A DNA stretch of 64,000 nucleotides from the NCBI GenBank assembly GCA_036426205.1, contig CM071570.1:56898926-56962925 (forward strand), written 5' to 3'. The notes under the pieces are model-generated. The model was not told the origin of the DNA and made no database searches. It was given only the letters and a program-made list of their open reading frames with translations. Origin of the DNA: Ascaphus truei. Lineage: Eukaryota; Chordata; Amphibia; Anura; Ascaphidae. Of the stretch, positions 2,980 to 62,465 are shown in pieces (positions within the stretch are counted from its first letter, which is position 1; every line of letters starts with the position of its first letter). The position numbers and the translations under genes are program-made.

Positions 2980-3596
2980 TGTAGGAGATACGTGCAGAGG
3001 TATAACCAGGAAGACGTATGTGAGGGAAAATAACATTGGTTTTTATTTAGCCCGCGGGCTTTAAACAGTACAGCTTTTTGTCAGCATGCAAAATAAACAA
3101 AACAGGCCTATCCCTTTGTAAGGGCTAACTTACATTTACCAGTCCCTATCTGCAGGTCTGGGAGGCTTGGCCTCTTACCAACTTCTGACAACAAAGTCCA
3201 AAGAGGTACTTGAAAGCAGGGGCTCTTTATATCAGACTCCAGGTCTGGGTTGGTGTCCGTTGGGGGAGGGGGGGAAGGGGGACAGCCTCTGGTGTGTTCC
3301 AGAGTCTGCTGTGCCTTGGAATAGAGGGTCTGGTTCCCTGGGATCTCTCTCTGGCAGCACAGTCCTTCTGTGTTAGAGATGTGATCTCTCTGGCAGCCCA
3401 GTCCTCCTTGGCTAGAGAACTCTTTGCAGTGTGTGCAGCACGCTTTTGAACCTGCTTGATCAGCCAGGTGGGGACTGGCTAATTGATTCTAGCTCCAATT
3501 AACCAGCTCCCTGCTGGATTCATCAGCTACAGGCTTTAAGGCTTTAAGTGTGCTGCCTTTTTAAACCTGGGAAAGGCCCTTTCACACATACCAACA
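2980..3596 (-). mobile_element. solo LTR-like repeat (family B)
   Basis: This block begins TGTAGGAGA and ends TTTCACA. It is clearly homologous over its whole length, in the same orientation, to 23762-24349. Shared blocks include TATAACCAGG near the start and TTAACCAGCTCCCTGCT near the end. The sequence GGTTTTTATTTAGCC near 3038 is an AATAAA signal on the other strand, which suggests that the LTR is transcribed on minus. The flanking pentamers TGTAC/CATAC agree at only 3 of 5 positions, so the boundary is approximate. Confidence 0.55.
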
Positions 3597-3681
3597 AAAT
3601 CAATGGCGACAATTTGATGATAAAATATATTGTTTTGTAGCTTTGTCCTCATGAGAAAGAATAAAGAACCTGGCATCCTTA

Positions 3682-4182
3682 TGTAGCCTAGCCTCTGGCC
3701 GCTACTTAATTTCCTGGGCCCTACCAGTGTACGACCTGTTAGGTGCAGGCAGTGGATGGGATAATTCCTTCTTAAAGGCTCGGTGTGCTTTTGCAGCCTT
3801 GGATTCATTAGATGTATCGAAGGGCGGGCCTTAGCAACAGCCAGAGAGTGCCAGCCTGAGGGGTGGGTACTGATTGGACCACACACTGGATGTGAGGGCC
3901 TATCAGTATACAGATCTGATTTGTTATGAGTCAGAGTTACAGTGCTGAATGAAAGGTGTCAAGTATGGGCAATCCTGCTGCTATCCAGAGCATCCATGTT
4001 GACTGGAGGCGCTGCACCAAAGAATTAAGGTAACCTGTAAACCTGTCCTGTTATCCCCACAACACAGTGGAGCACTCAGCCCTCCTGTTGCCAAACAGGT
4101 ACAGCACATCATCTAACTGGAGTAGCAGAGAAACAGATGACACCAATCTCACTTAGGGGGGGCGGGGGGTAGAAGGGCTACA
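3682..4182 (+). mobile_element. solo LTR (family A)
   Basis: The 501-bp block is bounded by TGTAGCC and GGGCTACA and flanked by the 4-bp direct repeat CTTA (3678-3681, 4183-4186). It carries the same GGAGGCGCTGCAC block and the CTGTTGCCAAACAGGT tail as the copy at 1295-2109. The shared 4-bp duplication length is consistent with one integrase. Confidence 0.65.
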
Positions 4183-7100
4183 CTTAAAAATACACAATAA
4201 TTTGAAAAACATTACAGAAGAATATTACCATACAGTCAAGAGACAATGTTTTTGGACACTTGTTAAATATAAAACCTTGAGATAGCCTAAAATTACACTT
4301 TGTTTCCCCATTTGTTGGCTATTTGATAACACTTTGTTTGTGGATTGCATTTGTAATTGGACTCTGTATTTCAGTGGTACTCATACTCTAGTTGAACATG
4401 GTGGTTTTCTTGCTTTAAGTAAGGGTTCTTGCTATGTTCCTAAAAACATCATGCTCATTATCGAATTACAAAACGATGAACTATTTGAAACATGTGTATG
4501 ATCTGTTGCGTATTTGTAATCACTCCTAACTTCTAGTTAGTGAGCTACAGGGTGTACAAGAATAAAGCATCAAACCTTATGCATTCATATGTGTCTGATC
4601 CTGCAATTTATCCTCCTTGAAAATCATAATCCTCAACTGTCATAAATCTAAGGAGGAGACATGAGCTGGAGGGTACATTAAATTATTTATTGATTCACTT
4701 TACATAGCAGTAGTCTTCCAGCATGGATCCTAATCATCAGGAAAGTGAAAGGAGGGAAATCTCTAGAGCAATATATTTCACAAAGAGTTCTCTCATCATT
4801 TTATCCAAAGTTACTTAGTTACATACTGTAGTACGTTTGACTCTAACTTTGAGTTCATTGAGTTCTTTCTTTGGCTTTCTGCACTTTTCTTTCTGTTTTA
4901 GAAGAGATGAAGAAACAAAGGTGCCGCAGCCCATTATGTGACTTGAAACTCAAGGAGCAGAACTTTGCTGTTTTCCCCACCAGAAGGATATGCTACAGCA
5001 GATAAGCTTGAACTATAAGAATAGGAAAATGGGAAAATGTCACCTGTCAACAGTGTTTGCCCCACCAGTAATGACATCATAAAAATGGTAGGACATTAAA
5101 GTATTATTATACCTCCCTTGAGGTTCAGACGAGTGGAGAAAAATATAAATGCTAAAAAAAATTTTTTTTTAAATAAGTCATGGTAATCTTGCTATAGTCC
5201 ATTAAAATGTGCTTGTAAATACAGTATGAGAGATAACAGCAGTGTATTCATGTTCCATTATGCTTTTCTAGTATTATACATTTATGCATTCAGGCAGAGA
5301 AAGGTTCCATGATGATAAATGGCAGATGTGTCAAATCCTAAAATAGTTTTTAAATGTCCGAAAAAGATGAAACTACTTGGGTCTCAAATGTATTTCTCTT
5401 GTGATGATTTCTGATTTCCCTGATTAAAGATAGTCGAGAGAGAAATATACAGATATGGTCTTCCGTTCCGTCTCCAGAAACACTCCATGGGCAGTGCGTT
5501 TGCTGCCCGCGGTGGAATATGTGCCTCTCCGTGACACATTTTCACCCGCTATGGCTTTTAAAAAGCCGGGTGAAGCTCGGGCACACTTTTTGTGGACTTC
5601 ATCTGTATTGAATTGCTGAAAAAATAATAACACACAACCCCATTGTGATGTGATCTGGATACATGGCTAAGGCTGGGATAAACTTGCTTATACTGTTTAT
5701 GCATTTCACTGCAGCTGCCGTTTCATCAGAAATGTAACACTGATAACTACATCCCGCTAAGGAGAAGGAGGGGGGTGGGTCCTTTTTGAGCACAGGTGTC
5801 TTTCCATATGTTATTTGCAGGGAGGCTTGAGGGGTTATATATAGTGTTTGGGACCCTACTGAAAGGATGCTTTAAAACTGATTAAAAATTACATTAAGAG
5901 TTGAATATATTTTAAAAAAAAGTCACTAGTATCTAATACTACAGAACTGATCTATTTAAAAAAATAGCAATGTTTTGCTATTGTACTTTAAAGGAAACTA
6001 GGAGTACAGGGCTACAGCTGTGAGTTGTAGAGCTCAAAAGTATGCTGTAATAACAGCATTTCCCAGCATCTGGGTTAGTTCAATGCACGCTGCCCTGCAT
6101 GTGGGTTCTAATCCTGTTGTGTCTGACACTGGTACCCCCTTTATCAAAAGGGCCTTTTTAAACTGATTGGCCGTAAGGATATATTTTAGGATGTGTGACT
6201 CATTTAAATATACTTTAGCATATCTCCCAGGGTACCTCAGATATGTTTATTTTTCAGCACAGGCATCTCTTCTCCTTGTCACAAAAGCCCTAAATCCGGC
6301 TATGGAGAGAACTCGGAATTCCTTTCTCACCTGCTTTGCGGTAGTGAGAAAAAAAATGTGACTTGTTTAGCAGAGATTTAGCCTTTTGCCCTTTTTGGAG
6401 CTACTGGAATACAGTAAATTTGCAAAAAATGCGATTTTGGTAATTCCTCCCGGATTTGCACTGGCAGAATGAAAACACTTCTAGAAAAGCCTTTTTCGCA
6501 CAGTGACATGTGAAAATGGCTTACAGAATAGCAAAATATGCAATTCGGAGCTACTAGAATAGGCCTGATACGCCTGTTTTTTCACTTGCAGTATGTGAAT
6601 AAATCTAATCTTGTTGCTGAGGGCATGCAAGTTTATTTTCCCTTTTCTTCTGTGCTTGTTCCTGCAATATGTTTTGTGTTCCTTGCAGTTTGGTATGCTG
6701 AAGAGGGATATCCAGGAAATGTAGCACCAGCACACTAATTATCTGACACCCTTTTTGCTATTCTGTAGTAAATACACAATAGTCCCAACTTTTTTACATT
6801 TCTTTTAACTAATTCTTATTTATTTTGTTTGGTTATGTTTTGTATTCTAAGTTGGGATGTGATGTCTTGTATAATTATTTCATTTTATAACTTCTGTTTC
6901 TAACATTAGTTGCACATATTTTTGAGTCATTTTTTTAATATATATTTCCTTTTTATTTACTAATTTATTTGGCTCTTGAAAGTATTTTGCTTTGCCACTG
7001 CAAATACTGTATTAATAATCCCTTGTCAAGAGTTATATTATGGTTTGCTCTTTTTCTCTCCCTTTTGCTTCTCATGTTCTTTGATGTTATTCAAATCTGT

Positions 7101-46119: not shown

Positions 46120-47710
46120 CAGGCCTGCACAACTCGTAAAGTGAGAAGGGCCGAACTGCTCCAAGGAAAAAAAAATTGGGCCGCACGGGTAAAATCATCA
46201 TCATCAATCATCATCATTTTCTCCAGCACATCATCATCATCATCTCCTCCTCAGCACCTCTCATCATCAATCTCCCCCAGAACCGTCACTATCAACCTTT
46301 GCGATACTCCCCATCTATCTCTCATACCTCACTCTCACCCTCACCCACACACATAATACTCCCCCTCCACATCAAACACACAATAACCCCCTGCACACCA
46401 CAACACATCCCACCCCTGACCCCACACACATCCCACTCCCCTGCCCACATCACTTCCCCCTGCACCTCACATCACCCCCTGCACATCACATCCCCCCCTG
46501 CACATCACATCACCCCCCCCTGCACCTCACATCACCCCCCCGGCACCTCACATAAACTCTCCCCCCCTGCACCCCACATCACTCTGCCCCCCTGCACCTC
46601 ACATCACCCCCCTTCACCTCACATCACCCCCCCTGCACCTCCCATCACTCCCCCCTGCACCTCACATCACACCCCCTGTACCTCACATCACTCCCCCCCC
46701 CTGCAACTCACATCACTCCCACCCCCCCTGCAACTCACATCACCCCCACCCCCCGGCAACTCACATCACTCTCCCCCCCGGCAACTCACATCACTCCCAC
46801 ACCCCCCTGCAACACATACTCCACCCCGTGCAAATCAAATCACTCCACACCCCCCCTGCAACTCACATCACTCCCTCCCCCCCTGCAACTCAAATCACTT
46901 CCCCCCCCCCTTCCGCAACTCACACACCCTCCCCCCCCACAACTCACACCACTCCCCGCCCACCCCCCCTGCAACTCACACCACTCTCCCCTCACAAAGA
47001 AAACAGAGTCGGGCCCACAGCCCATTTCAGCAGCCCCCCCAGCCCATTCCATTTCAGCAGTCCCCCCCATATGTTCAGCAGCCCCCCAGCCAACTCTCCA
47101 TGTCAGCAGCCCCACACCCTTCCTCCCATGTCAGCAGCCCCCCACCCCCCTCCCATGTCAGCAGCCCACCACCCCCCTCCCATGTCAGCAGCCCCGCAGC
47201 CTCCCTCCCATGTCAGCAGCCCCTGCTTAAGCCTCGCGCATGTCCTCCCTCACCTCGCGCTCCCTCTTTGCTGCGGCTCCTGCTGAAGCTTCACCAACCA
47301 CCCAGGCCGCGAGACACAACCGGCAACGATGATGGCGACAGCGAGATCACCCTCCCCGCTGTCTGTCTCTTTCGCTGCGTCACGCACCCGAGAGACCAAT
47401 CAGCGGCCGGCTTGCCCAGATGACGCCGCCCCGCGTACAACGTTAGCTGCGGCAGGGAAGCGCGAGGGATGCGCGCTCTAGCAGCAGACCCGGAAGTTCC
47501 GGGTCGCGCTACACTGCTAGAGCGCGTCCCCGTGCTGGAGGAGGGAGGAGGTTAGGTTAGGTGAGAGCGCGCACTCCTACTGGAACGCGTCCTTTCCCTA
47601 CCAGGGAAGGGGGTTTTAAGAAGGGGGGGTTGAAGGGGGTCCATCGCGGGCCGCACGGGGTGCCCCGGCGGGCCGCATGCAGCCCGTGGGCCGTATGTTG
47701 TGCAGCCCTG
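46120..47710. mobile_element. non-autonomous hAT element
   Basis: Ends CAGGCCTGCACAAC and, inverted, CAGGGCTGCACAAC. Perfect 8-bp target duplications GTGCATAC lie at 46112-46119 and 47711-47718. An 8-bp duplication and CAG-type ends are diagnostic of hAT. The subterminal GGGCCG-rich sequence on both sides is common in Charlie-like members. No transposase frame. The interior is mostly minisatellite plus a CpG-rich 3' part (47300-47560). Confidence 0.85.
46440..47225 (+). repeat. two C-rich minisatellites inside hAT
   Basis: 46440-46995 has units of about 20-25 bp on CTGCACCTCACATCACCCCC, drifting to CTGCAACTCACATCACTCCC. 47025-47225 has units on CCCATGTCAGCAGCCCC. They keep a 415-codon frame open (46176-47423) that has no protein-like composition. 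Confidence 0.85.
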
Positions 47711-48780: not shown

Positions 48781-48964
48781 AACAGGAAAAATATATAATA
48801 AATTACAATGGTTTTATTAGACTAAACATAACAATATTATACATATAATTAAAAAATAGAGAATAATAAGAATAATAAAACATATCTATGAAATAGAAGA
48901 AAACATATGTTAATTACATTAAAATTAAATAACAATAAAAAGACAATAGAATGATATATATATA

Positions 48965-49200
48965 CTGCTGCGGCAGCTTTTATTCTAACAAATCACCGGT
49001 TTTTACCTGGCTTGTTCCTGGAATGCGACGCTGTTCACCTGGCGCATGCCGCGTTCATCTTGCGTTCCCAGCCACGGGTCATGCCCGGCTGATGCGTTTA
49101 TTGATAATGGTTCGGTTTTTAATTTGGCTGAAATGCTTCGCGTGTCCGCCAGATGGCAGATATTCATGAATTGTAATGCGCCGAATCAGTAATGTGTCGG
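48965..49200 (+). repeat. left terminal and subterminal region
   Basis: Nearly all of this 235-bp stretch matches the reverse complement of 62080-62299, including TGCTTCGCGTGTC, CAGATGGCA and ATTCATGAATTGTAATGC. GCTGCGGCAGC at the very end is itself a small hairpin. Confidence 0.8.
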
Positions 49201-49372
49201 CTTGCAGGTGTTTCGTTTAAAAAAGATACTGTACCACAGTGTGCTATTGTAACTTGGCCTTGGCCTTGAGACTGAAGGAAGAGGTTGCAAAAATGTATCA
49301 ATTTAGACTTTTCATATTAAAGAAAGACAAAGACCAGTTTCAGTTACAGTATTTTTCAGAGACCCACCCGCC

Positions 49373-49954
49373 ATGAGTGTTCAAGTGCAGCCCGCTTTCC
49401 AAAAACCCGACAGAAGTTACGCGTATTTGATATGTGCCGCGATTAATGCAACAGATGATAAGATGGCAATAGTTGCTCAAATTTATCAGTATTTTATCGA
49501 AAACTATGACTTTTACAAATTTTCGCCAACTCCTCATACGTGGAAGCGTGCAGTAAGGAAAAGCTTATTTAGTGATCCCTGTTTTCATCGTATTGAGCCA
49601 CAATTTGTTGGAGGGTATTGGTGTGTATCACCGGATTTTCCCCGTATCTATGATCATGAAGGCGGCAAAAGGCGAAGGGTCGTGTTAAAACCAAATAAGA
49701 AGCGACAGTCGCTGCCAAGCAATGCACAAGCACCAGCACCGGCTTCCAATGACGGTCCCACCGTCAGTGACAACCCTGAGCCTGAGTCGGATTTCGCGTG
49801 CAGTTTTGATGAAGCTTGCATGTACCTAAGCAATTTCCAGTCTCACCAGCTGACTACAGGTGGACTAGTCCCGCTGCAAACTATCGACGTGGATGATCAA
49901 GAAAGCTGGACTGGCAGTGGACTGGCGCCAGCTGAATGGGAAATTCTATGGTGA
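49373..49954 (+). CDS. forkhead-domain (FOX-like) protein encoded by transposon
   Basis: 193 codons, ATG in a strong context (CCGCCATGA). Residues 11-89 align with the forkhead winged helix: KPDRSYAYLI (helix 1), IVAQIYQYFIENYDFYK (helix 2), TWKRAVRKSLFSDPCF (recognition helix), GGYWCVSPDF (wing 1). In the recognition helix the usual base-contacting Asn and His are Arg59 and Lys63. A basic stretch follows (KRRRVVLKPNKKRQ, about 99-112), a likely nuclear signal, and then an acidic, Ser/Pro-containing tail that ends in DVDDQESW...AEWEIL. The frame is intact. A GTGAGT donor overlaps the last codons (intron 49951-50057). Spliced or not, the protein ends within two residues of the same place. Two AATAAA signals lie at 50141 and 50155. 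The role is inferred as a DNA-binding regulator or accessory factor of the transposon. It could also be a captured host FOX gene fragment. Confidence 0.8.
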   Translation: MSVQVQPAFQKPDRSYAYLICAAINATDDKMAIVAQIYQYFIENYDFYKFSPTPHTWKRAVRKSLFSDPCFHRIEPQFVGGYWCVSPDFPRIYDHEGGKRRRVVLKPNKKRQSLPSNAQAPAPASNDGPTVSDNPEPESDFACSFDEACMYLSNFQSHQLTTGGLVPLQTIDVDDQESWTGSGLAPAEWEILW

Positions 49955-50057
49955 GTACTGTAATGTTGCTGTATTATTTTGGTGAGGATGGCTGGGTACT
50001 TCTTTAAGGGGCTGACCATTACTGTACATTAAAACTTTTCTTTTTGTTTTTCCTCAG
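49951..50057 (+). other. predicted intron of forkhead gene
   Basis: Donor ATG/GTGAGT and acceptor TTTTTCCTCAG with a good pyrimidine tract. 107 bp. A spliced transcript would have TGA across the junction, so translation ends at the preceding leucine. Confidence 0.6.
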
Positions 50058-50140
50058 AAAAGAAAATGGCTAATAGGGGGATTTCGATGGATAATATTGT
50101 ACTGTATGCTGATGCTTTCCGGCCGTACAGTATACTGTGT

Positions 50141-50160
50141 AATAAACCCGAAAAAATAAA
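50141..50160 (+). terminator. poly(A) signals of forkhead gene
   Basis: AATAAA at 50141-50146 and 50155-50160, about 190 bp after the stop codon, with a T-rich stretch downstream. Confidence 0.55.
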
Positions 50161-50239
50161 ACTATGCATTTATTCTACATGTTCAGTATCGTTTCATTAT
50201 GTGTCTTCTACAGTATACTGTACAGTGGTATACAGTGCC

Positions 50240-51335
50240 TAACATCTATGGGCAAAATGATTTTTATTTCTTGGTGCCCTAGAACAGAAGTTCCCATGCC
50301 AATTGGCCGTGAACTTGACCGAGGCCCTAAGTAGTTCCCATGCCAATTGCGCGAATATAATTTAAAATAATCCGTTCTGTGGGTCTGAGCAGGTTGAAAT
50401 TCGCCTGGTCCTCATGCGGAAGGAGCCTTGCCATAGTGGCAAAATATCAGCCTTCCACGACCCCCGGAACCGGAGATACCAAAAGACAGTTTAAAAGCAC
50501 ATTACCAAAGTGGCTTTTTTCTGCCATGTAAGTCAATGGCAGAAACCTAAACTTTAACATTACCCTGACTCCGTTCTGTTGCCACGAGAGGGTCGCAATT
50601 TGGCATGCAATCCTGCCGCAACTAGGACTACATGGTGACCGAATCTGAGCCCTCTAGGTTGAACAGAACCGGAGTTGTGGGTTCCAGGTTTCTGCTCATT
50701 CTGACTTAGCCGTTTCAAAGCTTTCTCCGCCATTACGCTCAATGATAGGACCCTCCTCGCCGGTGTGACCCTTTCTCGCCGCCATTACTGGTTGGACCCT
50801 GTTGGGGTGAAGTGAGAGGGTTCCTAACATCTAGGGGCAAAATGAATTTTATCTCTAGGTGCCCTAGAACAGAAGTTCCCACGCCAATTGCCCTAGTTCC
50901 CACGCCAATTGCCCTAGTTCCCACGCCAATTGCGCGATCAGGCGGAAAAAAAACAGTGCAGCAAGCCTCGACATTCTAGAAACACTGTATTTTGTTATAC
51001 AGTACTATCAAAGGAGCAAATGGAAACAATGTACAGTACAGTAAGACAAATCAACATGTTCTTTTATTGGTGCAGTCAGTTCAAAAACATTTATTTACAA
51101 ATACAATGTTGAAGCATTATAAGTACTATCTCCTTTATTAAAGAAACACAGTACTGTATACAGTACAGTACAGTACAGTGGGATGGTGCGCAACACTGTC
51201 AGTCAGACCTGCACCAGTTCAGTCCTAGAGGGCAGCAAACAGGGCAGGTTTTCAGGGCAACCTTGAAAACCGTGCCTGTTTGCGGCCCTCAGGGACTGGA
51301 GTTGTGCATGTCCTGTGTAAAAAAACACACAACAA
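50240..51335 (+). repeat. module A, internal inverted-repeat partner of modules B and C
   Basis: About 1.1 kb that recurs inverted at 56640-57520 (B) and 57950-59150 (C). It contains a 590-bp unit flanked by about 110-bp direct repeats (CTAACATCTA, GGGCAAAATGA, CCCTAGAACAGAAGTTCCCA) and a 21-bp tandem array on GTTCCCACGCCAATTGCCCTA (50875-50936). A poly(A) signal for the minus-strand BEN-like gene lies inside (51134-51139). Conserved between copies but with no shared intact frame in all three. Confidence 0.75.
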
Positions 51336-51414
51336 CATCTCCTTTTTTAAGTACAGCGGGTACTATAGGGCAAAACATGTACAGTACAATACAGTTCAGC
51401 ACAACAGTATGGTC

Positions 51415-52812
51415 TCACTGAAAGTCCTCCACATTGTCCATCCATGGCCGATTCCTTGCATGGCGCAAAACACCATTAATGCAGTCTCTAACGCCTTTCA
51501 TTACAGGATCTGTAACTGGATAAAAGCGCAGCATTTCTTCCACAATGTTTTTCCTTAAATTGACAGGAAGCGCCTTTTTTACGCGATTCCCATCGTAGTT
51601 CACTTTGAACACCCACTCGCAGTACAACGAGTAGGGAACATGGTGCTTAAAAATGATCAAGGCATACTTGTGGGGTACACCAGCACTCTTCACCCTATAA
51701 TTCTCCCTGAGCTTCGGTGGCAGATCGCACAGGGTGATGTCGGGCACCGTTTCGATGCGAGCGTGTGTAGGTCTTTTGGGAACAGGTGTGCTTGAGGCGA
51801 CGGGCGATGGTAGGTTGTCTGGGAGGAAGCTTTCCTCCGGTCGTGGTTGCCGTGTTGTCTCCTGGCGTGGTCTTGATGGGGTTGTCATGTTCTCCTCAAC
51901 GGCATACATGTACACTACATCTTCTGGTGGAGGGGGTGCGCTTGGTGATGGAAGGGGGTCGAAGGTCCCATTCATCACATCCATGCCACCCCCCTGCTCC
52001 GGCATCGGGGAAACAGGGGCATTAGCACCGAGCAAATAATTTATGCCCGCTATGTCAGCCTCTATCTTCTCCATCCGTCGATCCATCCGTTGTTCCATTT
52101 GTAGCATCCATTGCTCCACATTTATCATAGTCTCCAGAAGCAGATTTATCTTTGCTAGCACAATAGAATTCCCGGGGAGATCCACACTTATCCCATTCAG
52201 CATCCGGTCTAACGAGCTGCTTCTTGTGCATGGCATCTGGACATCTGGGGGGATGGGTGCAACTGAGGATGAGATGGGGGTTCCATGGACAGAAGCAGCA
52301 TCGATGGAGAGTGGAGGAGGTGACCTGTGGATACCCGGTAGAGCAGAAGCGGCAGCGTCGTCGAAGAGGGATGGAGAAAGTGACCTTTGTATTTCCGGGC
52401 GAGAAGCAGAGTCGTCCAAGAGCAAAGGAGACAGTGACCCGTGGATTTCAGAGGCGGCAGCGTCGTCAGATGGAACCGGAGAAAATGGGGGTGGAGAAGA
52501 CGGGCTGAAGACTTCCGGGACAGCTACAGCAGAGTCGTCGAAGCATATGGGAGGAAGTGGTCTGCGGATTCGATGGGTTGGCTGCCAATCGTTTTGTGTC
52601 GAGAGTACAACACCGTATATCTTCTTCACATAATAAGGCTGACGTCTAAGAAAACCCTTAACCTTTGGGGTCAGCAGAAGGTTTTCTTTATTGGCCTTAG
52701 CCTGTCGCTTTGCCCTTGGCGTGGAAACGGCAACCGCCTTTCGCTTTTTCAGCTTGACAGGCACGGCAGAGGTGAGTGGGTTCTTGCATCCATAGAACCG
52801 GGGTTGCTCCAT
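51415..52812 (-). CDS. BEN-like domain protein encoded by transposon
   Basis: 465 residues from ATG at 52812 (context CTTCCATGG); an upstream in-frame GTG adds five codons but is not a eukaryotic start. Residues 20-40 are strongly basic (KLKKRKAVAV...AKRQAK), a likely bipartite nuclear signal, followed by KEN at 42-44. Residues about 91-172 are imperfect tandem repeats of about 20 residues (DDAAAS-EIHGSLSP, LLDDSASRPEIQRSLSP). Residues about 205-265 are heptad-like (EQWMLQMEQRMDRRMEKIEADI), a probable coiled coil. The C-terminal 103 residues (GVPHKYALIIFKHHVPYSLY, KKALPVNLRKNI, GVRDCINGVLRHA) fit the BEN-domain pattern of helices with a conserved KxALP. BEN domains bind DNA or proteins in chromatin. 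The frame is intact and divergent from the transposase. The domain name is tentative. Confidence 0.65.
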   Translation of the reverse strand: MEQPRFYGCKNPLTSAVPVKLKKRKAVAVSTPRAKRQAKANKENLLLTPKVKGFLRRQPYYVKKIYGVVLSTQNDWQPTHRIRRPLPPICFDDSAVAVPEVFSPSSPPPFSPVPSDDAAASEIHGSLSPLLLDDSASRPEIQRSLSPSLFDDAAASALPGIHRSPPPLSIDAASVHGTPISSSVAPIPPDVQMPCTRSSSLDRMLNGISVDLPGNSIVLAKINLLLETMINVEQWMLQMEQRMDRRMEKIEADIAGINYLLGANAPVSPMPEQGGGMDVMNGTFDPLPSPSAPPPPEDVVYMYAVEENMTTPSRPRQETTRQPRPEESFLPDNLPSPVASSTPVPKRPTHARIETVPDITLCDLPPKLRENYRVKSAGVPHKYALIIFKHHVPYSLYCEWVFKVNYDGNRVKKALPVNLRKNIVEEMLRFYPVTDPVMKGVRDCINGVLRHARNRPWMDNVEDFQ

Positions 52813-53063
52813 GGAAGCAGGTGGCACAATGCACTATCTGGACAAGGGCAAGTTCAGATAAAGATCATCGAGTGGGAGGCTATGCAAAGTGTGTGACCTT
52901 TTATGCATGGCGACCAGGTACAGGTGTTGAAAGTGGGCGTACTCTAATGTGAGTCATTACCGTATAAATACACCATCCATTTTGTGTTGACTGCACATAG
53001 AATACACATCGACTAAACATCGAATATACATTCTTGTGTTTGTATTTCTTTCTACTCGCAGCA
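52813..53063. promoter_or_regulatory. divergent promoter between BEN-like gene and transposase
   Basis: 251 bp between the two starts. TATAAATA (52963-52970) faces the transposase, about 94 bp upstream of its ATG. On the other strand CATAAAAGG (52898-52906) faces the BEN-like gene, 86 bp upstream. The two boxes imply coordinated expression from one short region. Confidence 0.55.
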
Positions 53064-54670
53064 ATGCCTGTTAAAAAGATTTCAAAGGATCTCAGCATGC
53101 GAATTAAGGAGATGTACACGAGCTGACACCGAATTGCTGCTATCCAGCGCTGGTTAGCTACTTCTGACCTCGTTGTGCCATTAACCACCGTGTGCTATCA
53201 TGCATACGGAAAAAACAGAGACCGCAAAAGGGCACCAAGGGTAACTAACGCGTAAGTATATTTATAAAACTTAACAAAAAAAATATAGAAAACTGTACGT
53301 ACTGTACAGTTCATACAGTACAGTACATCTACAGTACAGTTCTGTATCTACTGTAATACTGTTGTTATTTCTGTTGATTTATATTACAACATAGTTTGTC
53401 TATTTATATTTATAGTACAGCAGTATACATTTTTTGTATATTTCTATTTATCTTACAACGGTATATATAGGATGTATATTTATATTTATATTACAACAGT
53501 ATATTTATTTTGTATATTTATATTACAACAGTATACATTTTTTGTATATTTATATTTACTGTATATTACAACATTATATTTATATACATTTTATATTGCT
53601 GCATATTAATAAAACAATATATTTTCTTTACATTGTAGGGAGACAACTCTTCTGGTGGACAAAATAAGTGAGGAGAATGATGAGAGGAGTGCATTAAGGG
53701 TTAAAAACACTCTGCAGGAAAAGCGCAATCTGACTGTATCCGAGACCAGCATAAAGAAGATGAGACGCAGCATTGGATGGAAATATGGACGTGTGAGGTG
53801 TGCCGCTAAAATGTTTTATTCCTTGTCATTACAGAGCGTACCCGATGATACGGGACGCAAACAAAATAAAAAGAGTGGTCCAGGCCCAGGCATGGATCGA
53901 CAGTGGAGAGACTTTCCAGGATTGCATCTTCACTGATGAGTCTACTGTGTCGCTGGAGAGATTTGCAAGATTTGCGTTCCACAAAAAAGGCCGCATATCT
54001 TTGAAGCCGCGGCCAAAACACCCTGTGAAGCTGCATGTGTGGGGTGCCATCTCTAGGCGTGGACCGGGATGCATTGTCATCTTTGAAGGTAAAATTTATC
54101 AAATATAATGTCGCCTAATGCACTGTACTTGACTAGTGTTGCCTTACCGTATGCACTGTACTGTACTATTGTGCAGTTTTTTGAGCACTTTTCTTTTCTT
54201 GCTATAGGAATCATGAATAAAACTTTCTTCCAAGACAACATTGTGCCCGAGATACATCACACGCGAGTTCCCCAATGGTCACCACTTCTACCACGACAAC
54301 GATCCCAAGCACACCGCGTCAACGGCGCATATCCTTGAGCGCGACATCAACTGGGTGAAGACGCCAGCGGAGTAAGTGCAGTAGACCGTGTCCCATTTTT
54401 GTTCCCCACTGTTTTTAGCTCTTAAACCAATTGTTCTTTCTTTCCAATGACAGATCGCCAGACTTCAATCCGATCGAAATGGTCTGGCATCAGCTGAAGG
54501 ACCATATCCGGAAAGTGGCAAAACCCTCCAAAAAGGACGAGTTGTTGAAAGGCATAATGAGTTTTTGGAACGATGTACTCACCGTGGAACGCTGCAATAA
54601 ATATATAGACCATATTGCCACTGTGTTGCCCATTGTCATCGCGCGTAATGGGCAAGCATCAGGAAAGTAG
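53064..54670 (+). pseudogene. Tc1-type DDE transposase, five exons, two lesions
   Basis: Predicted exons: 53064-53251, 53639-53797, 53835-54088, 54208-54371, 54454-54670, about 327 residues, a normal Tc1 length. The N-terminal HTH region (IKEMYTS*HRIAAIQRW) has TGA at 53124-53126. The second HTH half is LTVSETSIKKMRRSIGWKYGR. The catalytic domain starts YPMIRDANKIKR. Catalytic residues: Asp in FTDES (53935), Asp in HDNDPKH (54295), Glu in SPDFNPIE (54476). Exon 4 has a one-base frameshift between HHTR and the FPNGHHFYHDND segment. Between the second Asp and the Glu I count 32 residues; 34 is usual in Tc1. Intron 2 would be only 37 bp, so it may be an indel. The other donors (GTAAGT, GTAAAA, GTAAGT) and acceptors are good. 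Reaction in the intact family: cut-and-paste at TA. Confidence 0.8.
53390..53620 (+). repeat. AT-rich minisatellite in transposase intron 1
   Basis: Irregular units on TTTATATTACAACAGTATA, about 30-60 bp apart, between exons 1 and 2. Confidence 0.75.
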
Positions 54671-55620
54671 TACTGTGCTGTAGTATTGTAAGTACAGTAT
54701 GATACAGGTAAGTATGGCACAAATTTTTTTCTTTCCAGATAGTAAGAGTATACAGTAGTTAGTTTTTCTTTACAGAGAGAGCAGCACCAGCCATCAGGTT
54801 ACAGTACAGTACATAGAATTTAACAGTAGTCAGAGTATACAGTAGTTACAGTATACAGTAGACTAGTTTGACAGTACTACAGTAACTGCCTACTAACTGC
54901 TCCATTTTTTTCTTTCCAGAGAAAGCTGCACCAGCCACCTACAGTAGTTCTACACATCACACAATGCCATTATACAGTACAGTACGCACATACAGTACAG
55001 TACAGTAACTGCACTAATTTTTTGTTTTCTTGTCGTTTCAGGAAAAAGGGTGGCCTAGGGGGAGGTGGGGGTGTTGTGTCCAGTCAAATCTGCTTATACA
55101 GTCAAATGTACAGTATATAAACAGCAGTAATGATGTACACAAAACCTCTCCTCTCTCAATGAACTACTGTACTGCAGACAGAATGAGGAAAAGATAAAGA
55201 CGGAAAAAATAATATTACTATACAGTATATAGTATATATATTATACAGTACATTACAGTACTGTATATAGTATTAAATAATATTCTTATAAATGTGCATT
55301 ACTCATGTTTCCCCATGTTTTACAAATGTTTTACAAATGGTTATCCAATTTCAAGCTGCCAAAAGAACTTAATAAAGACTGCATTATGTATTATTCCTGA
55401 TTATTTTTATATTTGTATTTTTTGGTTCCTGATAAAATAAAATAAATATTTATTCACTTTCCTGCGAATCATAATCATTGACAATCACCCCTACAGTGCA
55501 CCAATGAATAAGAATGTTTTGTAAATGTTTCTCCGATTTCACTCTGCCAGAAGAATTTAATAAAGGCTGCAGTATTGTATGTATTATTATGATTATTTTT
55601 CTTTGTATTTTTTTTTCCAT
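54671..55620 (+). other. transposase 3' flank, TACAG-rich
   Basis: Repeated CAGTACAGTA motifs (54800-55020, 55220-55270). AATAAAG at 55368 within CTTAATAAAGACTGCA, a likely transposase poly(A) signal. The same block returns at about 55558 and 56620 (TTTAATAAAGGCTGCAGTAT), so the 3' end is triplicated. Confidence 0.5.
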
Positions 55621-56138
55621 GATGAAATATCAGTTTACTCTCAATTCTCACAGTGCTGTGCACATCAGATTTACATTTCAAATTAGAGAGGGGATTTTCC
55701 AAAGCGTTACCGTTAACAAAACAGGCCTCTAAGGGTTGGGGGAGGGGGATGTTGTGATTAGACGCAGGCGTACTGAGTCTTTGTAGCTCGGCTATGGGCG
55801 GATTAAGAACACAATGGCAATATGCAGAAGATTAACGACCCAGTGGAGAGAAGGGGTTGGTAGGATAGGGTGACTCAGCCGATTGACGCTTGGCTAGGGA
55901 GGGATTAAAAACACAATGAGAAAAGTACTGCAACTGCAGAAAATGAATGACTCTGGAGGTGTGTGGCTGAAATAGTTAACAGCACTGTAATTTCAAAAGG
56001 CAGTTCATCATAATAATTTGATGAGTAAACCCCCAAATACAACCCCCAAATACAGTACATAAAAAGCAAGTCACTTTAACTCCCTGTGCCTCATGCACCA
56101 AAAACAAACAGTAGATTTTCTATATATATATATATATA

Positions 56139-56498
56139 CTGCTGCGGCCGAGTTTATTCGAGCATTTGCCCGTTCTCGGCCGCAGCAGTAGCCTGGCGTG
56201 CGCTGGAGGGTGACGGGCACGCGCCGAAGCAGCGGAAGAGCGCCCTCCGATCGGGGCGCTCTCCCTCCCGCTGCCGGGTCCGCCGGGTCCCCCGGAACCC
56301 CCTGCCGCCGTCCCCCACATCGCGGGACACCAGGGCTCCCTCGGGGAGCCCTGGACGCGTGTGCAGGGGGCGCACGCTCCCAATGACGCGTGACCGCGCG
56401 TCGGTGACGCGCGGCACGCCGAGGGGTGGCCACTAGCAAGCCGGGAAATCTCCCGGCTTGCGGATCTGGCCGCAGTGCAATAAACTGTGTCGCCAGTG
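56139..56498. mobile_element. 360-bp nested element with related terminal repeats
   Basis: Ends CTGCTGCGGCCGAG then TTTATTCGAGC; inverted right end CACTGGCGACACAG then TTTATTGCACTG. TA lies on both sides. The ends are of the same type as the large transposon, but the interior is CpG-rich and unrelated. Two strong hairpins: CTGCTGCGGCCGAG with its complement 22 nt later, and GCAAGCCGGGA/TCCCGGCTTGC with a 4-nt loop (56433-56462). Confidence 0.7.
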
Positions 56499-56639
56499 TA
56501 TACTGTAAATATATTATAAATTAATATTGATACAGTATAAATGTCCATTTTTCATGTATCTCCATGTTTTATAAATGTTTTGTAAATGTTTCTCCGATTT
56601 CAATCTGCCAGAAGAATTTAATAAAGGCTGCAGTATGTA

Positions 56640-57520
56640 TTATTGTGTGTTTTTTTACACAGGACATGCACGACTCCAGTCCCTGAGGGCCGCAAACAGG
56701 CACGGTTTTCAAGGTTGCCCTGTACTGTAGCAGTAAACCATACACCTGTTGATGGTTTGAATTGCTGTGCACTTTAAATGTTTCAACATTGTACAGTATT
56801 TGGAAACAAATGTTTTTGTACTGACTCCACCAATAAAAGGACATGTTGATTTGTCTCACATTGTTTCCATTTGCTCCTTTGACAGAGTAACAAATGTCGA
56901 GGCTTGCTGCACTGTTTTTTTACTGCCTGATCGCGCAATTGGCGTGGGAACTAGGGCAATTGGCGTGGGAACTAGGGCAATTGGCATGGGAACTTCTGTT
57001 CTAGGGCACCTAGAGATAAAATTCATTTTGCCCCTAGATGTTAGGAACCCCCTCACTTAACCCCAACAGGGTCCGAGCAGTAATGGCGGCGAGAAAGGGT
57101 CACGCCGGCGAGGAGGGTCCTACCATTGAGCGTAATGGCGGAGAAAGCTTTGAAACGGCTAAGTCAGAATGAGCAGAGACCTAGAACCCACAACTCCGGT
57201 TCTGTTCAACCTAGAGGGTTCAGATTTGGTCACCATGAAGTCCTAGTTGCGGCATGATTGCATGGCAAATTGCGACCCTCTCGTGGCAACAGAACGGAGT
57301 CAGGGTAATGTTAAAGTTTAGGTTTCTGCCATTGACTTGCATGGCAGAAAAAAAGCCACTTTGGTAATGTGCTTTTAAACTGTCTTTTGGTATCTCCGGT
57401 TCCGGGGGTCGTGGAAGGCTGATATTTTGCCACTATGGCAAGGGTCCTTCCGCATGAGGACCAGGCGAATTTCAACCCGCTCAGACCCACAGAACGGATT
57501 ATTTTAAATTATATTTATAT
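56640..57520 (-). repeat. module B
   Basis: Inverted copy of module A: GTTCCCACGCCAATTG array at 56934-56998 on minus, and the shared GTCTTTTGGTATCTCCGGTT block. The 60-codon frame open in A and C is stopped in B. Confidence 0.75.
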
Positions 57521-57949
57521 ATTTATATATTTTTATTTTAAAGATATTAAAGAATGTACTGTATTGTATTTAAAACATGTGACTGTAAACAATACTGACT
57601 GACAAATGTTTAAACACCCTGATGAAATATCAGTTTACTCTCAATTCTCACAGTGCTGTGCACATCAGATTTACATTTCAAATTCGAGAGGGGATTTTCC
57701 AAAGCGTTACCAATAACAAAACAGGCCTCTAAGTGTTGGGGGAGGGGGATGGTGTGATTAGACGCAGGCGTACTGAGTTTTTGTAGCTCGGCTATGGGCG
57801 GATTAAGAACACACTGGCAATATGCAGAAGATTAACGACCCAGTGGAGAGAGGGGTTGGTGGGATAGGGTGACTCAGCCGATTGACGCTTGGCTAGGGAG
57901 GGATTAAAACACAATGACAACAGTAACTGCAGAAAATGAGCAACGCGTT

Positions 57950-59150
57950 GTTGTGTGTTTTTTTACACAGGACATGCACGACTCCAGTCCCTGAGGGCCG
58001 CAAACAGGCACGGTTTTCAAGGTTGCCCTGAAAACCTGCCCTGTTTGCTACCCTCTAGGACTGTACTGGTGCAATCTCAACCCGCTCAGACCCACAGAAC
58101 GGATTATTTTAAATTATATTTATATATTTTTATTTTAAAGATATTAAAGAATGTACTGTATTTTATTTAAAACATGTGACTGTAAACCATACTGACTGAC
58201 AAATGTTTTCACACATGTACTGTACTGTAGCAGTAAACCATACACCTGTTGATGGTTTGAATTGCTGTGCACTTTAAATGTTTCAACATTGTACAGTATT
58301 TGTAAATAAATGTTTTTGTACTGACTCCACCAATAAAAGGACATGTTGATTTGTCTCACATTGTTTCCATTTGCTCCTTTGACAGTATAACAAATGTCGA
58401 GGCTTGCTGCACTGTTTTTTTACTGCCTGACCGCAAAGCCGCAAGATCGGCAACATTGTAAAAAAGGAGCAATGAGCGCGCAATTGGCATGGGATCTAGG
58501 GCAATTGGCGTGGGAACTAGGGCAATTGGCGTGGGAACTTCTGTTCTAGGGCACCTAGAGATAAAATTAATTTTGCCCCTAGATGTTAGGAACCCCCTCA
58601 CTTCACCCCAACAGGGTCTGACCAGTAATGGCGGCGAGAAAGGGCCACGCCAGCGAGGAGGGTCCTACCATTGAGCGTAATGGCGGAGAAAGCTTTGAAA
58701 CGGCTAAGTCAGAATGAGCAGAAACCTGGAACCCACAACTCCGGTTCTGTTCAATCTAGAGGGCTCAGATTCGGTCACCATGTAGTCCTAGTTGCGGCAG
58801 GGTTGCATGCCAAATTGCGACCCTCTCGTGGCAACAGAACGGAGTCAGGGTAATGTTAAACGTTAGGTTTCTGCCATTGACTTGCATGGCAGAAAAAAAA
58901 GCCACTTTGGTAATGTGCTTTTAAACTGTCTTTTGGTATCTCCGGTTCCGGGGGTCGTGGAAGGCTGATATTTTGCCCACTATGCAAGTGGTCCTCCGGC
59001 ATGAAGGACCAAAGGCGCATTTCAACCCGCTCAGACCCACAGAACGGATTATTTTAAATTATATTCGCGCAATTGGCGTGGGAACTTCTATTCATTTTGC
59101 CCCCAGATGTTAGGAACCCTCTCACTTGACCCCAACAGGGTCTGAGCATG
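57950..59150 (-). repeat. module C
   Basis: Second inverted copy of module A, longer than B. It includes a repeat of the first 100 bp at its far end (59065-59150). It lies 300 bp from the right terminus, so A and C give the transposon long internal inverted repeats. Confidence 0.75.
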
Positions 59151-59179
59151 TACAGTACTGTACTTTAAAATAAATTAAA

Positions 59180-59451
59180 TATGCAATATTACTGCGTGCG
59201 CACGCACAGACTATGTACTGACGTAGGTTGAACTGCCAAGGTATTAGATTTCAAAGACAACAGCTCGCAAACGCCCCCATGAGTTTTTACACGGCATTGC
59301 AGAATTGCAGACAGCGGGAATAAAATGCTTAATTCACGGGCGCGAAAATAACGCAATACACTCCGGGAGAAAATGACACAAAACCGCACATAACCGGGAT
59401 AATCTGAAATTCGTGGAGCTAGCCGAGTTAGAATAAAGTTGGTCGCCTCTG
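59180..59451. repeat. right terminal and subterminal region
   Basis: Reverse complement matches 61903-62055: the first 44 bases agree at 36 positions, followed by GCATTTTATTCCCGCTG and CTGCAAT blocks in the same spacing. This fixes the right end of the large transposon. Confidence 0.8.
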
Positions 59452-59692
59452 TATAAAAATATATACAACGGCAGACATATAGAGTATAATCTATATACCA
59501 AAGTTATTGTATGGAACGAAAATTATCCAACTATATAAATAGTATCTATGCTATATAGATGGATTGTTTAATGGTGTATTCATGGTTAAAATTGAACTTA
59601 TATAGGCATAAGGAACACAGTAAAATGAAAAATATATAAAGGAGCATTGAGCTCAATTAAACGTGTATAATGATGAAATATACTAGGGATTT

Positions 59693-60067
59693 TTATAGAG
59701 ACCAGATGTCTATCTCCTCATTTAGTCCCAGAGGTGCCATGGTTTGCATTTTGTAGATCCATAGGCTCTCGTGTTTGGATAATGTTTTTTCCCTACCTCC
59801 TCCTCGTCTTCCAACCGGTATGGTCTGGAGCAATGTGGGATCACAATTGTGTCTCCTCTTAAAGTGTCTAGGTACACTATGTTTGTCTAGCCCATGTCTA
59901 ATATTTCTAGCATGTTCCAGAATTCTAGTTTTGAGACATCTTTTTGTGCGTCCAATGTACTGATATCCACAGGGACATTGGAGGAGATAGATCACATGAG
60001 TGGATTTGCAGGATATACAATCCTTCACCACAAATTTCTCTTTTGTGGTGAAGGAGATAAAAGTCTT
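59693..60067 (-). pseudogene. GIY-YIG endonuclease domain of Penelope-like element
   Basis: Continuous with the RT frame upstream except for TGA at 60068-60070. Motifs: CISCKSTHVIYLLQCPCG, YQYIGRT (GIY-YIG core), R-x3-EH with Arg in LKTRILEH, RHFKRRHNCD, and the C-terminal GLNEEID typical of the family. The domain nicks DNA for target-primed reverse transcription. It is intact as a domain. Confidence 0.85.
60020..60056. other. 14-bp hairpin at RT-endonuclease junction
   Basis: TCCTTCACCACAAA and its exact complement TTTGTGGTGAAGGA are separated by 7 bases, in the coding stretch between the cysteine linker and GIY-YIG. May be chance or a local inverted duplication. Confidence 0.6.
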
Positions 60068-62465
60068 TCATTCTGGGTTAAGCATACTGCACACCTTACA
60101 CTTCCCACAGCAAAAATTCCTCGATGGTTTTTTAGCTGGTAACCATGATGTTTCGGTTATCTTAGATACTGGAAATCCAATATCACTGGGGGCCAAGAAA
60201 TGTTTTAGGTTCTTTGCCTTACGATATATAAAACTTGGTTGTAGCTGTAAGGAAGGGCCCAGGATAGGATCATTACAAAGAATGTTCCAATTTTTCTTGA
60301 TGACTTTCTGGATACTACTGGTGGCTGAATTAAACTCCGTAATAAAAGGAACCTTGATTTTATTGTCATTATTGATACTAATGAATTTTTCCTTCTTAGA
60401 TTGTATCAATAGGGAGTCCCTTTCCATACTGTCAACCCTATTTAAGGATTCAGCCAACAGAGATCTATTGTATCCACGTTTAATACATTTTTCAAACATG
60501 GTTTTGGATTGAGTATTGAAGTCTTCCTGGAAACTACAGTTGCGCTTTAATCGCATAAATTGGCCTGTAGGTATGTTATTAATCCAAGATTTCTTATGAT
60601 TACTTGACGATAAAAGTAAGCTATTGGTGTCTACTTTCTTGAAGAAAGTTTTAGTAATTATTGGAAAGTCAATTTTTGCTTCCAAACTCAAGTCTAAAAA
60701 GTCTATTTTATTGCTATTGTAATTTGAAGTAAACTTGAGATTAAAACTATTCTGATTCAAATATATCTCGAATTGCTGTAAAGTTTCCTCGTCACCATCC
60801 CAAATACAGAGAACATCATCGATATATCTGCGCCAAATGATAACATGGCTGGCGAATGGATTGTTGTTCCAGATATATTGATGTTCCCATGCCCCCATGT
60901 ATATATTGGCATAGCTGGGGGCAAAGCGTGTACCCATAGCTGTGCCACATAGTTGGATAAAAAATTGGTCCATAAATAAAAAATAATTATGTGACAATAT
61001 AAATTCTATTGCATTAGCAATGAATAAGCTATTGGATGGATGTAGCTCTGGATCTCCTTGTAGTGTATTAGACACTGCTTGTATACCATTTTTTATGGGG
61101 AATACATGTATAGAGTGATTGTACATCAAATGTGGCCCACATATATTTTTCTTGCCATTTCACACTCTTTAGTAGGTTCAACACCATAGTTGTATCTTTT
61201 ATGTAAGAAGGCAATTTTTGGACATATCTCTGTAGAAAAAAGTCTACATACTGAGATAGGTTTGATGTTAGTGAACCAATGCTCGAAATTATGGGCCTTC
61301 CCGGCGGATCTTTTAAGCTTTTGTGAATTTTTGGGAGGTGATAATATATTGGTATACGAGGATATTCTGTATATAAAAACTGTAATTCCAATTTATTCAA
61401 GACTGTTGACACCATAGCATCATCAAGTAATATTTTAAGTTCTCTTAAAATCTGACTCGTGGGATCTTGACCCAATTTACCATATGATGAAGATTCACCT
61501 AATATGCGTATTGCTTCACACTCATAATCTTTTCTATCTTGGAGGACAATTCCCCCTCCCTTGTCTGCTTGACGTATAATTAATTCTTTGTTATCCTGCA
61601 ATTTTTTTAAAGCTAAATACTCCTCATGTTTCAAATTATGTTTCACATCAGTGTTTTTATAGTTCTTTACTAACGATGAAAATTCATTATTTACTACGTT
61701 GAAAAAAGAATCAATAAAGCTCCCTTTACTTTGTGCAGGGTAAAATCGAGAGGGTGGTTTAAAACCCGTATGTTGGCATGTTATCTGATCGTCCTCTTCA
61801 ATGGGTAAATCTACAATTTGTTCATCACCTAAGGGTTCTAGTCCCATCTCCTTTTTTAGAAAGTGTCTTTTAAGTGTTAAATTTCGTGTGAACTTGTATA
61901 TACACTGGCGACACACTTTATTCGAGCTCGGCTAGTCCCACGAATTCGGGTATACCCGGGTGTATTGAGGTTTGTGACTGTTTTCTGCCCGAGTGCATTG
62001 AGGTATTTTCCAGGCAGGGATTATAGCATTTTATTCCCGCTGGCTGCAATACTGCACAGTATATATATATATACTGCATTACAATTCATGAATTTATGCC
62101 ATCTGGTAGACACGCGAAGCATTGCAGAATATTAAATCCTAATCATTATCATTTAACAGATCAGCCGCCCGTCAGCCAGGCATGAACCCAGGCTGGGAAG
62201 GCAAACGCAACGGGGCTTGTCAGAGGTGAGGAGCGGCGCATTCCAGGTATCTGCCAGGTACATACTGGGTATTTGCTCGAATAAAGTGTGTCGGTGCAGT
62301 ATCAGTAAATAACTGAAATCCATTCGGACCACATGTTTTTGAAAAGGAAAGGCCCTTATTAAGGACTTGTTCCTGATCTGTGGTCAAAGTGACTGAGGAC
62401 AAATTAAAAATTCTGTTGTTATACCCTCTCCTATTCTCTTCTTTTTGATAGCTTGTGATCTCCAA
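60068..62465 (-). pseudogene. Penelope-like reverse transcriptase, interrupted
   Basis: N-terminal block LNKGLSFSKTCGPNGFQLF (62300-62400) is cut by the 397-bp element at 61903-62299. It then continues with KFTRNLTLKRHFL, ADKGGGIVLQDR, PIYYHLPKIHK, GRPIISSIGSLTSNLSQYVD and TFDVQSLYTCIPH. A frameshift follows near 61080-61130. The second part has LCGTAMGTRFAPSYANIYMG, the catalytic YIDD in RRYIDDVLCIW (near 60820), KIDFLDLSLE, and a cysteine-rich linker CCGKCKVC. TGA at 60068-60070 separates the endonuclease. Closest to Neptune-type elements known from frogs and fish (family knowledge). It is the host of two insertions of one transposon family. Confidence 0.85.
61903..62299. mobile_element. 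397-bp deletion derivative of the forkhead transposon family
   Basis: Left end CACTGGCGACACA then CTTTATTCGAGC; right end inverted CTGCACCGACACA then CTTTATTCGAGC. Flanked by TA. 61903-62055 matches the right end of the 10.5 kb transposon, and 62080-62299 matches its left end, so the element is two ends joined after internal loss. Insertion is inside the Penelope RT frame; with one TA removed, the reading frame on both sides is in register. Confidence 0.8.

What the first reader, a model, noticed from the sequence alone, without database searches (positions are those of the whole stretch)
48965..59451. A Tc1/mariner-type transposon that carries a forkhead protein and a BEN-like protein
Seen: TA-flanked related terminal repeats, a transposase with the Tc1 catalytic motifs, and between the ends two further genes with intact frames, a forkhead winged helix and a 465-residue protein with a BEN-like C-terminus. 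Known: Tc1/mariner elements are normally 1-3 kb with a single gene. Inferred: the two proteins are accessory factors, for example end-binding, targeting, or control of host or transposon transcription. Cargo capture by one copy is the alternative.
Basis: partly seen in the sequence, partly recalled or inferred. Interest (0 to 1): 0.95.

Follow-up and report, generated by a model that had tools for sequence, protein, structure and literature searches.

The report
Frog Tc1-like transposon with forkhead gene
A multicopy jumping gene of the Tc1/mariner kind in a frog genome carries, besides its cutting enzyme, a forkhead-type DNA-binding protein and a second fast-evolving protein as standard equipment, which is unusual because such elements normally carry one gene.

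Summary
The element is real; its ends are exact (48965-59451, TA-flanked). A 397-bp gene-less relative interrupts a retroelement frame nearby; removing it plus one TA restores that frame, fixing the family's ends and TA duplication. The host genome was searchable. All 20 fetched left-end copies carry forkhead sequence just inside the end. Five loci of a diverged subfamily keep the order forkhead(+), second gene(-), transposase(+) wherever these segments were found. Capture by a single copy is excluded.

Corrections: the transposase has five exons, spacing DD32E, and is broken here (a TGA, a frameshift). The "BEN" label is not supported by any test. The second gene's ancestral start lies 32 codons upstream of the reported ATG, with a TAG between in this copy.

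Between subfamilies the transposase core is strongly conserved (omega 0.11). Forkhead (0.80) and second gene (0.78) cannot be told from 1, yet their consensus frames hold no stop, which chance would rarely give (P 0.022, 0.003). Best reading: resident, fast-evolving accessory regulators acting in trans; function is inferred. Ciliate TBE/Tec elements are the multi-gene Tc1/mariner precedent; my paper searches listed no vertebrate one.

The parts
48963..48964 (.). TA target duplication, left
   Evidence: TA precedes the left end in 19 of 20 fetched copies, in the 20th (L017) only the A was fetched
48965..49372 (+). left end with imperfect terminal repeat CTGCTGCGGCAGCTTTTATTCTAAC; its first ~215 bp recur in the gene-less relative
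49373..49954 (+). forkhead gene, 193 aa, intact in this copy; an AATAAA follows at 50155-50160
50235..51340 (-). repeated unit A, inverted relative to units at 56640-57515 and 57947-59150
51415..52812 (-). second accessory gene (465 codons from this ATG); family start is the ATG at 52908, cut off here by TAG at 52834-52836
52813..53063 (.). 251-bp spacer between the divergent second gene and transposase, holding TATAAAT at 52963-52969; lowest divergence of five non-coding stretches measured (JC 0.041 between subfamilies). Its first 96 bp overlap the ancestral N-terminus of the second gene
53064..53251 (+). transposase exon 1, in-frame TGA
53639..53797 (+). transposase exon 2
   Evidence: array of exon-2-like repeats in P0003
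53835..54088 (+). transposase exon 3, first catalytic D; the intron before it is 37 nt here, 82-101 nt in 8 of the 9 other copies measured (the ninth, L015, was measured across a duplication)
54208..54371 (+). transposase exon 4, second D; 164 nt here against the commonest 172 nt, so the frame is shifted
54454..54670 (+). transposase exon 5 with catalytic E; TAG stop at 54668
56139..56498 (+). nested short element with related ends, TA on both sides
   Evidence: 93% copy in L012
56640..59150 (+). repeated units B and C (inverted relatives of unit A) and a repeat of 55617-55932
59151..59451 (+). right end; last ~158 bp recur in the gene-less relative
59452..59453 (.). TA target duplication, right
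61903..62299 (-). 397-bp gene-less relative joining the same left and right ends, inserted in a retroelement frame with TA duplication

Best explanation
This is one decayed copy of a multicopy, recently active Tc1/mariner-type element that encodes three resident genes: a spliced DD32E transposase, a forkhead protein, and a protein of unknown fold on the opposite strand. Shown: exact ends, TA duplication, forkhead sequence in all fetched left-end copies, conservation of the three-gene order in a diverged subfamily, and strong constraint on the transposase core. Inferred: the two extra proteins act in trans as DNA-binding regulators of the element (its transcription, silencing or timing of transposition). 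A gene-less relative moves with only ~215 bp and ~158 bp of the ends, so the genes are not needed in cis. The proteins evolve fast while keeping open frames, as expected for proteins that track changing DNA sites or host silencing rather than for a catalytic part.
For: Left end: 40 scored (window included) of 3499 candidate places, 95-100% identity. 20 copies fetched: all carry at least the first 167 bp of the forkhead gene inside the left end; L011 keeps 196 bp of it, L012 488 of 582 bp, and in L023 and L027 it is split by an insertion. Second gene or part of it in 9 of 20 (L023's lies in a noisy stretch); transposase exons in 9 of 20; right end in the same orientation in 8 of 20, each followed by TA; one fetched copy (L022, 8.7 kb) shows every part. 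Diverged subfamily: forkhead in 4 of 5, second gene 5 of 5, transposase exon 1 at least in part 5 of 5, later exons 3 of 5, in the window's order. NG86 between subfamily consensuses: transposase exons 2+3+5 (206 codons) omega 0.11 (0.05-0.21), forkhead 0.80 (0.47-1.46), second gene 0.78 (0.57-1.12). No stop in consensus frames where 3.5 and 5.0 were expected (P 0.022, 0.003). Changes shared by two or more copies of the window's subfamily have lower omega (0.60, 0.72) than singletons (1.10, 0.90). Named Ascaphus truei proteins match all three genes.
Against: The omega intervals of both accessory genes include 1, and random placement of the same changes gives omega as low in 27% and 23% of trials. 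12 of 17 forkhead copies and 6 of 6 second-gene copies examined carry a stop or frameshift (L016's forkhead counted as intact), and one forkhead stop is shared by two or more copies; some single-base indels may be assembly error. No forkhead motif (RYAAAYA) lies in either end and only 2 in the spacer (P 0.057); the whole element holds 35 against 19.6 expected (0 of 300 shuffles reach it), so sites inside the element are not excluded. Nothing here shows expression or binding.
Confidence: 0.6

Rival explanations
1. The two proteins are part of the transposition machine itself: they bind or bring together the long ends, as accessory end-binding proteins do in some other transposon superfamilies (recalled: Harbinger Myb-like protein, CACTA TNPA).
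For: Both are present in two subfamilies in the same order. The transposase's own N-terminal exon also shows no constraint (omega 1.02 over 62 codons, interval 0.37-4.8), as if DNA-binding parts co-evolve with the changing ends.
Against: No exact 9-base words shared between left and right ends beyond the terminal repeat and one other, and no forkhead consensus site in the ends. The gene-less relative needs only ~373 bp of end sequence.
Confidence: 0.25
2. Passengers: genes captured once in an ancestor and carried along without function.
For: Omega of both genes is not separable from 1.
Against: Consensus frames of both subfamilies are stop-free although chance would give several stops. Four of five diverged loci have 520-530 codon open frames of the second gene, but these loci were chosen for long frames.
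Confidence: 0.12
3. Cargo captured by one copy.
For: None found.
Against: Forkhead sequence in 20 of 20 left-end copies; the same genes in a diverged subfamily.
Confidence: 0.01

Closest known systems
TBE and Tec elements of ciliates (Tc1/mariner, DD34E)
   Same: Tc1/mariner-type elements with three genes, one in complement, and accessory genes of unknown function; the TBE 57kD gene is described as having evolved rapidly under relaxed constraint after the families split (PMC4724952 and PMC7325037, passages only).
   Different: All three TBE genes have overall dN/dS 0.1-0.3 and the 57kD protein has zinc finger and kinase domains (PMC4724952, passages); Tec carries a site-specific recombinase and terminal repeats of about 700 bp are described for the ciliate elements (PMC7325037, passage). 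Here: a vertebrate, a forkhead gene, short imperfect repeats, fast-evolving accessory genes.
Tc1-like single-gene transposons
   Same: DDE_3 transposase, TA duplication, terminal repeats; closest near-full-length named relative outside Ascaphus in the list is Xenopus laevis LOC121396371 (52%, also 32 residues between the second D and E).
   Different: Tc1 elements are described as ~1.3 kb with a single ORF (PMC7325037, passage); this one has three genes, introns and 8-10 kb. Whether the Xenopus relative has companion genes was not testable.
Forkhead (Fox) transcription factors
   Same: PF00250 well above the gathering score.
   Different: The helix that in FoxA2 reads WQNSIRHSL reads WKRAVRKSL here (alignment); that N and H of this motif touch bases is recalled.
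VANDAL/MuDR accessory proteins (anti-silencing VANC/VANA, MURB)
   Same: Fast-evolving non-transposase proteins of a DNA transposon (recalled, not tested).
   Different: Different superfamily and hosts; no anti-silencing was tested here.

Membership tests
Tc1/mariner superfamily | DDE transposase of the Tc1 type | tested here: met
   PF13358 E 1.8e-19 on the conceptual protein; 186 homologues at E<=0.001 of 882 candidates, 120 listed, several named Tc1-like or Tcb2 transposase
Tc1/mariner superfamily | TA target duplication | tested here: met
   empty-site restoration for the 397-bp relative; TA at 19 of 20 left ends (the 20th clipped) and after the right end of the 8 copies that show one
Tc1/mariner superfamily | terminal inverted repeats | tested here: met
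   17 of 27 identical in this copy; short and imperfect
Tc1 family (DD34E) | 34 residues between the second D and E | tested here: not met
   32 residues here and in P0005, P0007, P0014; 34 in P0009 (sequences; counted by hand)
Tc1 family (DD34E) | single gene, about 1.3 kb | tested here: not met
   three genes; 8.7 kb (L022) and 10.5 kb (window) in the two copies seen with both ends and all genes
Forkhead domain | match above the curated Pfam cut-off | tested here: met
   55.8 bits, cut-off 27
Forkhead domain | base-contacting N and H of the recognition helix | tested here: not met
   R and K at those positions in the alignment; their role is recalled
BEN domain | match to PF10523 or a solved BEN structure | tested here: not met
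   no BEN match in Pfam up to E 10; no BEN chain; PF10523 in the whole genome gives 6 matches, none here; hhalign against four BEND3 domains scores 11.2, 60 column shuffles mean 11.5, best 17.5
BEN domain | BEN fold | tested here: inconclusive
   model mean pLDDT 54.6, all-helical, no Foldseek match at E<=0.001
TBE/Tec multi-gene elements | homologous accessory genes | not tested
   their proteins were not compared; similarity is in gene number only

The most novel reading that the evidence does not exclude
A vertebrate Tc1/mariner lineage captured a forkhead gene and a second DNA-binding-type gene and uses them as its own fast-evolving regulators (for example against host silencing, or to time transposition to a cell type), flipping part of the element by recombination between its internal inverted repeats.
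Probability: 0.3. Interest if true: 0.88.

Novelty: new variant of a known kind. Interest (0 to 1): 0.75.

Why it matters
Tc1/mariner elements are the textbook minimal transposons: one gene and two ends. A high-copy vertebrate family that keeps a forkhead gene and a second gene through subfamily divergence shows that this superfamily can become multi-gene outside ciliates. It gives a concrete case in which transposon-encoded transcription-factor-like proteins can be tested for transposition, silencing and host gene effects.

Tried and rejected
BEN identity: tried by Pfam, PDB sequence and profile search, two AlphaFold2 runs (mean pLDDT 42.0 and 54.6), Foldseek, whole-genome PF10523 search and profile comparison with the four BEND3 domains of the same genome; all negative or uninformative. 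By eye the C-terminus resembles a BEN domain, which is no test.

Forkhead sites in the ends: none. A 9-bp match between the right terminal repeat and the spacer was set aside because it overlaps the conserved start context of the second gene. The L023 copy seemed to show a diverged second gene, but that stretch has the dense insertions of unpolished reads. Selection within recent copies is uninformative for function: singleton changes have omega 1.10 (forkhead, 17 fetched copies plus the window) and 0.90 (second gene, 6 plus the window); copies covering less than 80% of the gene in one match were dropped there. In one search rows covering less than 60% were dropped, leaving 20+4 (forkhead), 8+5 (second gene) and 7-8 + 3-4 (transposase exons), window included in the first figure; whether L023's noisy second gene entered that set was not printed.

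Limits: the subfamily-2 consensus rests on 3-5 copies per gene, and exon 4 was left out of the omega test. Candidate counts (3499, 4876, 14368, 29118) are first-look figures, not copy numbers. Subfamily-2 loci were chosen by long open frames of the second gene, so their intactness is biased upward.
Full report
What is there. The element runs from 48965 to 59451 and is flanked by TA. In order it holds: a left end (48965-49372); a forkhead gene on the plus strand (49373-49954, 193 aa); a repeated unit; a second gene on the minus strand (51415-52812); a 251-bp spacer with a TATA box; a transposase on the plus strand in five exons (53064-54670); repeated units; and a right end. The exons are inferred from frames, GT-AG borders and alignment with relatives, not from transcripts. 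The intron between exons 2 and 3 is only 37 nt here but 82-101 nt in 8 of the 9 other copies measured; the ninth, L015, gave 2944 nt because its exon pieces were matched across a duplication. This copy's transposase has a TGA in exon 1 and an exon 4 of 164 nt against a commonest length of 172 (6 of 10 other copies). It is therefore not functional as it stands.

Ends and target site. A 397-bp element at 61903-62299 (minus strand) joins a left end (75% identical to 48979-49179) to a right end (79% identical to 59298-59455) with about 20 bp between the matched stretches. It sits in the open frame of a retroelement; a neighbouring frame has a weak GIY-YIG match (E 0.0021, below Pfam's cut-off) and the other two frames tested have none, so 'Penelope-like' is by resemblance only. 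Taking out the insert and one TA restores the frame ...NGFQLFTDIYKFTRN.... This fixes the family's ends and its TA duplication, and indicates that about 215 and 158 bp of ends suffice in cis. The right ends of the 8 fetched copies that show one end ...CACTG followed by TA. TA precedes the left end in 19 of 20 copies; in the 20th only one base was fetched.

Copies in the genome. The host genome (2.82 Gb) was searchable. The left end gave 40 scored matches (window included) at 95-100% identity out of 3499 first-look candidates; the second gene gave 40 at 95-100% out of 4876. I fetched up to 10 kb downstream of 20 of those left ends. Forkhead sequence lies directly inside the left end in all 20: L011 keeps only its first third, L012 lacks its last sixth, and L023 and L027 are split by insertions. 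The second gene or part of it is in 9 (one of these, L023, in a noisy stretch). Transposase exons are in 9, and a right end in the same orientation in 8. Because the fetched stretch was at most 10 kb, absence of later parts in a copy is not proof of loss. L022 has every part within 8.7 kb. Six copies with both ends lack the second gene and transposase (L010, L014, L018, L024, L025, L026), i.e. internally deleted derivatives. Eighteen forkhead rows differ from their majority by 0.9-3.5%, so the family spread recently.

A diverged subfamily. Using the named Ascaphus truei protein P0002 as query I got 153 matches from 14368 first-look candidates (136 scored); listed identities are 76-98%. The best covers it fully at 98%, so the window's genome is very probably Ascaphus. 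Five such loci, chosen for long open frames, were fetched. Forkhead is in 4 of 5 (not found in L033), the second gene in 5 of 5, the spacer in 5 of 5, transposase exon 1 (at least in part) in 5 of 5 and later exons in 3 of 5, in the same order and orientation as in the window. Left terminal repeats related to the window's were seen for L029, L030 and L031.

Selection. Between majority sequences of the two subfamilies (NG86), transposase exons 2, 3 and 5 together give omega 0.11 (95% bootstrap 0.05-0.21), exon 1 gives 1.02 (0.37-4.8), the forkhead gene 0.80 (0.47-1.46) and the second gene 0.78 (0.57-1.12). Within the second gene the three parts give 0.98, 0.56 and 1.09; within the forkhead gene the domain gives 0.75 and the tail 0.86. 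Placing the same changes at random gives omega as low or lower in 27% (forkhead) and 23% (second gene) of trials, so omega alone does not show constraint. Yet the frames stay open: 3.5 and 5.0 stops would be expected by chance and none is seen (P 0.022 and 0.003). Four of the five diverged loci have second-gene frames of 520-530 codons. Inside the window's subfamily most copies are dead: 12 of 17 forkhead and 6 of 6 second-gene copies examined carry a stop or frameshift (L016 counted intact), and one forkhead stop is shared by at least two copies. Non-coding divergence between subfamilies is JC 0.106 (left end), 0.110 (forkhead 3' region), 0.148 (tail), 0.065 (an intron) and 0.041 (spacer). 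Nonsynonymous divergence of the two genes (0.133, 0.128) exceeds four of these five. The low value of the spacer is partly due to 96 bp that code for the ancestral N-terminus of the second gene.

The second gene. Eleven of 14 aligned rows have TAC where the window and L015 (two rows) have TAG, in the frame that starts at the ATG at 52908 and adds 32 codons. No test supports the BEN label. I call it a fast-evolving protein of unknown fold with a heptad-like middle part (by eye).

The forkhead protein. It scores twice the Pfam cut-off. The recognition helix differs from FoxA2 at the two residues that contact bases (alignment; their role is recalled), so its target is probably not the canonical one. 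The canonical motif is absent from both ends, occurs twice in the spacer (P 0.057) and 35 times in the whole element against 19.6 in shuffles; the last may reflect AT-rich repeats.

Transposase relatives. 186 homologues at E<=0.001, 120 listed. In the alignment the window family, Xenopus laevis P0005, P0007 and zebrafish P0014 have 32 residues between the second D and the E. A paper search including the term DD32E listed 12 of 95 papers, none with that term.

Named Ascaphus proteins. Homologues of all three genes occur among Ascaphus truei proteins: P0001 (forkhead, 75% over 42% of the query), P0002 and P0003 (second gene, 66% over 53% and 75% over 30%), P0004, P0006 and P0011 (transposase). 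P0003 is a gene model in which repeats of transposase exon 2 precede the start of the second gene (42% identity over 53 residues, pairwise E 2e-9).

How it most likely works. Cut-and-paste by the DD32E transposase on its short ends follows from family knowledge and the TA evidence. The two other proteins are not needed in cis. I think they most likely act in trans as DNA-binding regulators of the element; their pace of change fits proteins that follow shifting DNA sites or host silencing. This last step is inference.

Novelty. In the held library I searched for forkhead, BEN and accessory genes in Tc1/mariner or DNA transposons and for transposon work on Ascaphus. No listed title or abstract beginning reported a forkhead gene in a transposon; only two papers were opened, by passages. 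Subscription papers and repeat databases were not searchable. Ciliate TBE/Tec elements are the known multi-gene Tc1/mariner elements, so I file this as a new variant of a known kind.

Noticed in passing
L015, L016, L017, L021: In 4 of the 11 left-end-anchored copies that hold second-gene or transposase segments (a fifth, L023, is noisy), that segment lies inverted relative to the left end and forkhead, without a right end of the large element in between (L015 has a short diverged element there); unit A and units B/C are long inverted repeats that could mediate the flip.
   Followed up: partly
window 59693-62465: Retroelement-like open frames on the minus strand with a weak GIY-YIG match in one (E 0.0021), interrupted by the 397-bp element.
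   Followed up: partly
L011, L013, L015, L023, L027: Short elements with diverged ends like those of the 397-bp element lie inside large copies: both ends seen in L015, L023 and L027, one end in L011 and L013.
   Followed up: no
L023:about 3000-5100 (in the reverse complement of the fetched stretch): Dense single-base insertions relative to the window; reads like unpolished long-read sequence, a warning for indel counts in this assembly.
   Followed up: partly
window 46387-47223: Low-complexity repetitive stretch that yields long proline/serine-rich chance frames.
   Followed up: no
G000 C11422:56518-58152 (L034): Host BEND3 with four BEN domains in one 745-codon frame; used as control.
   Followed up: yes
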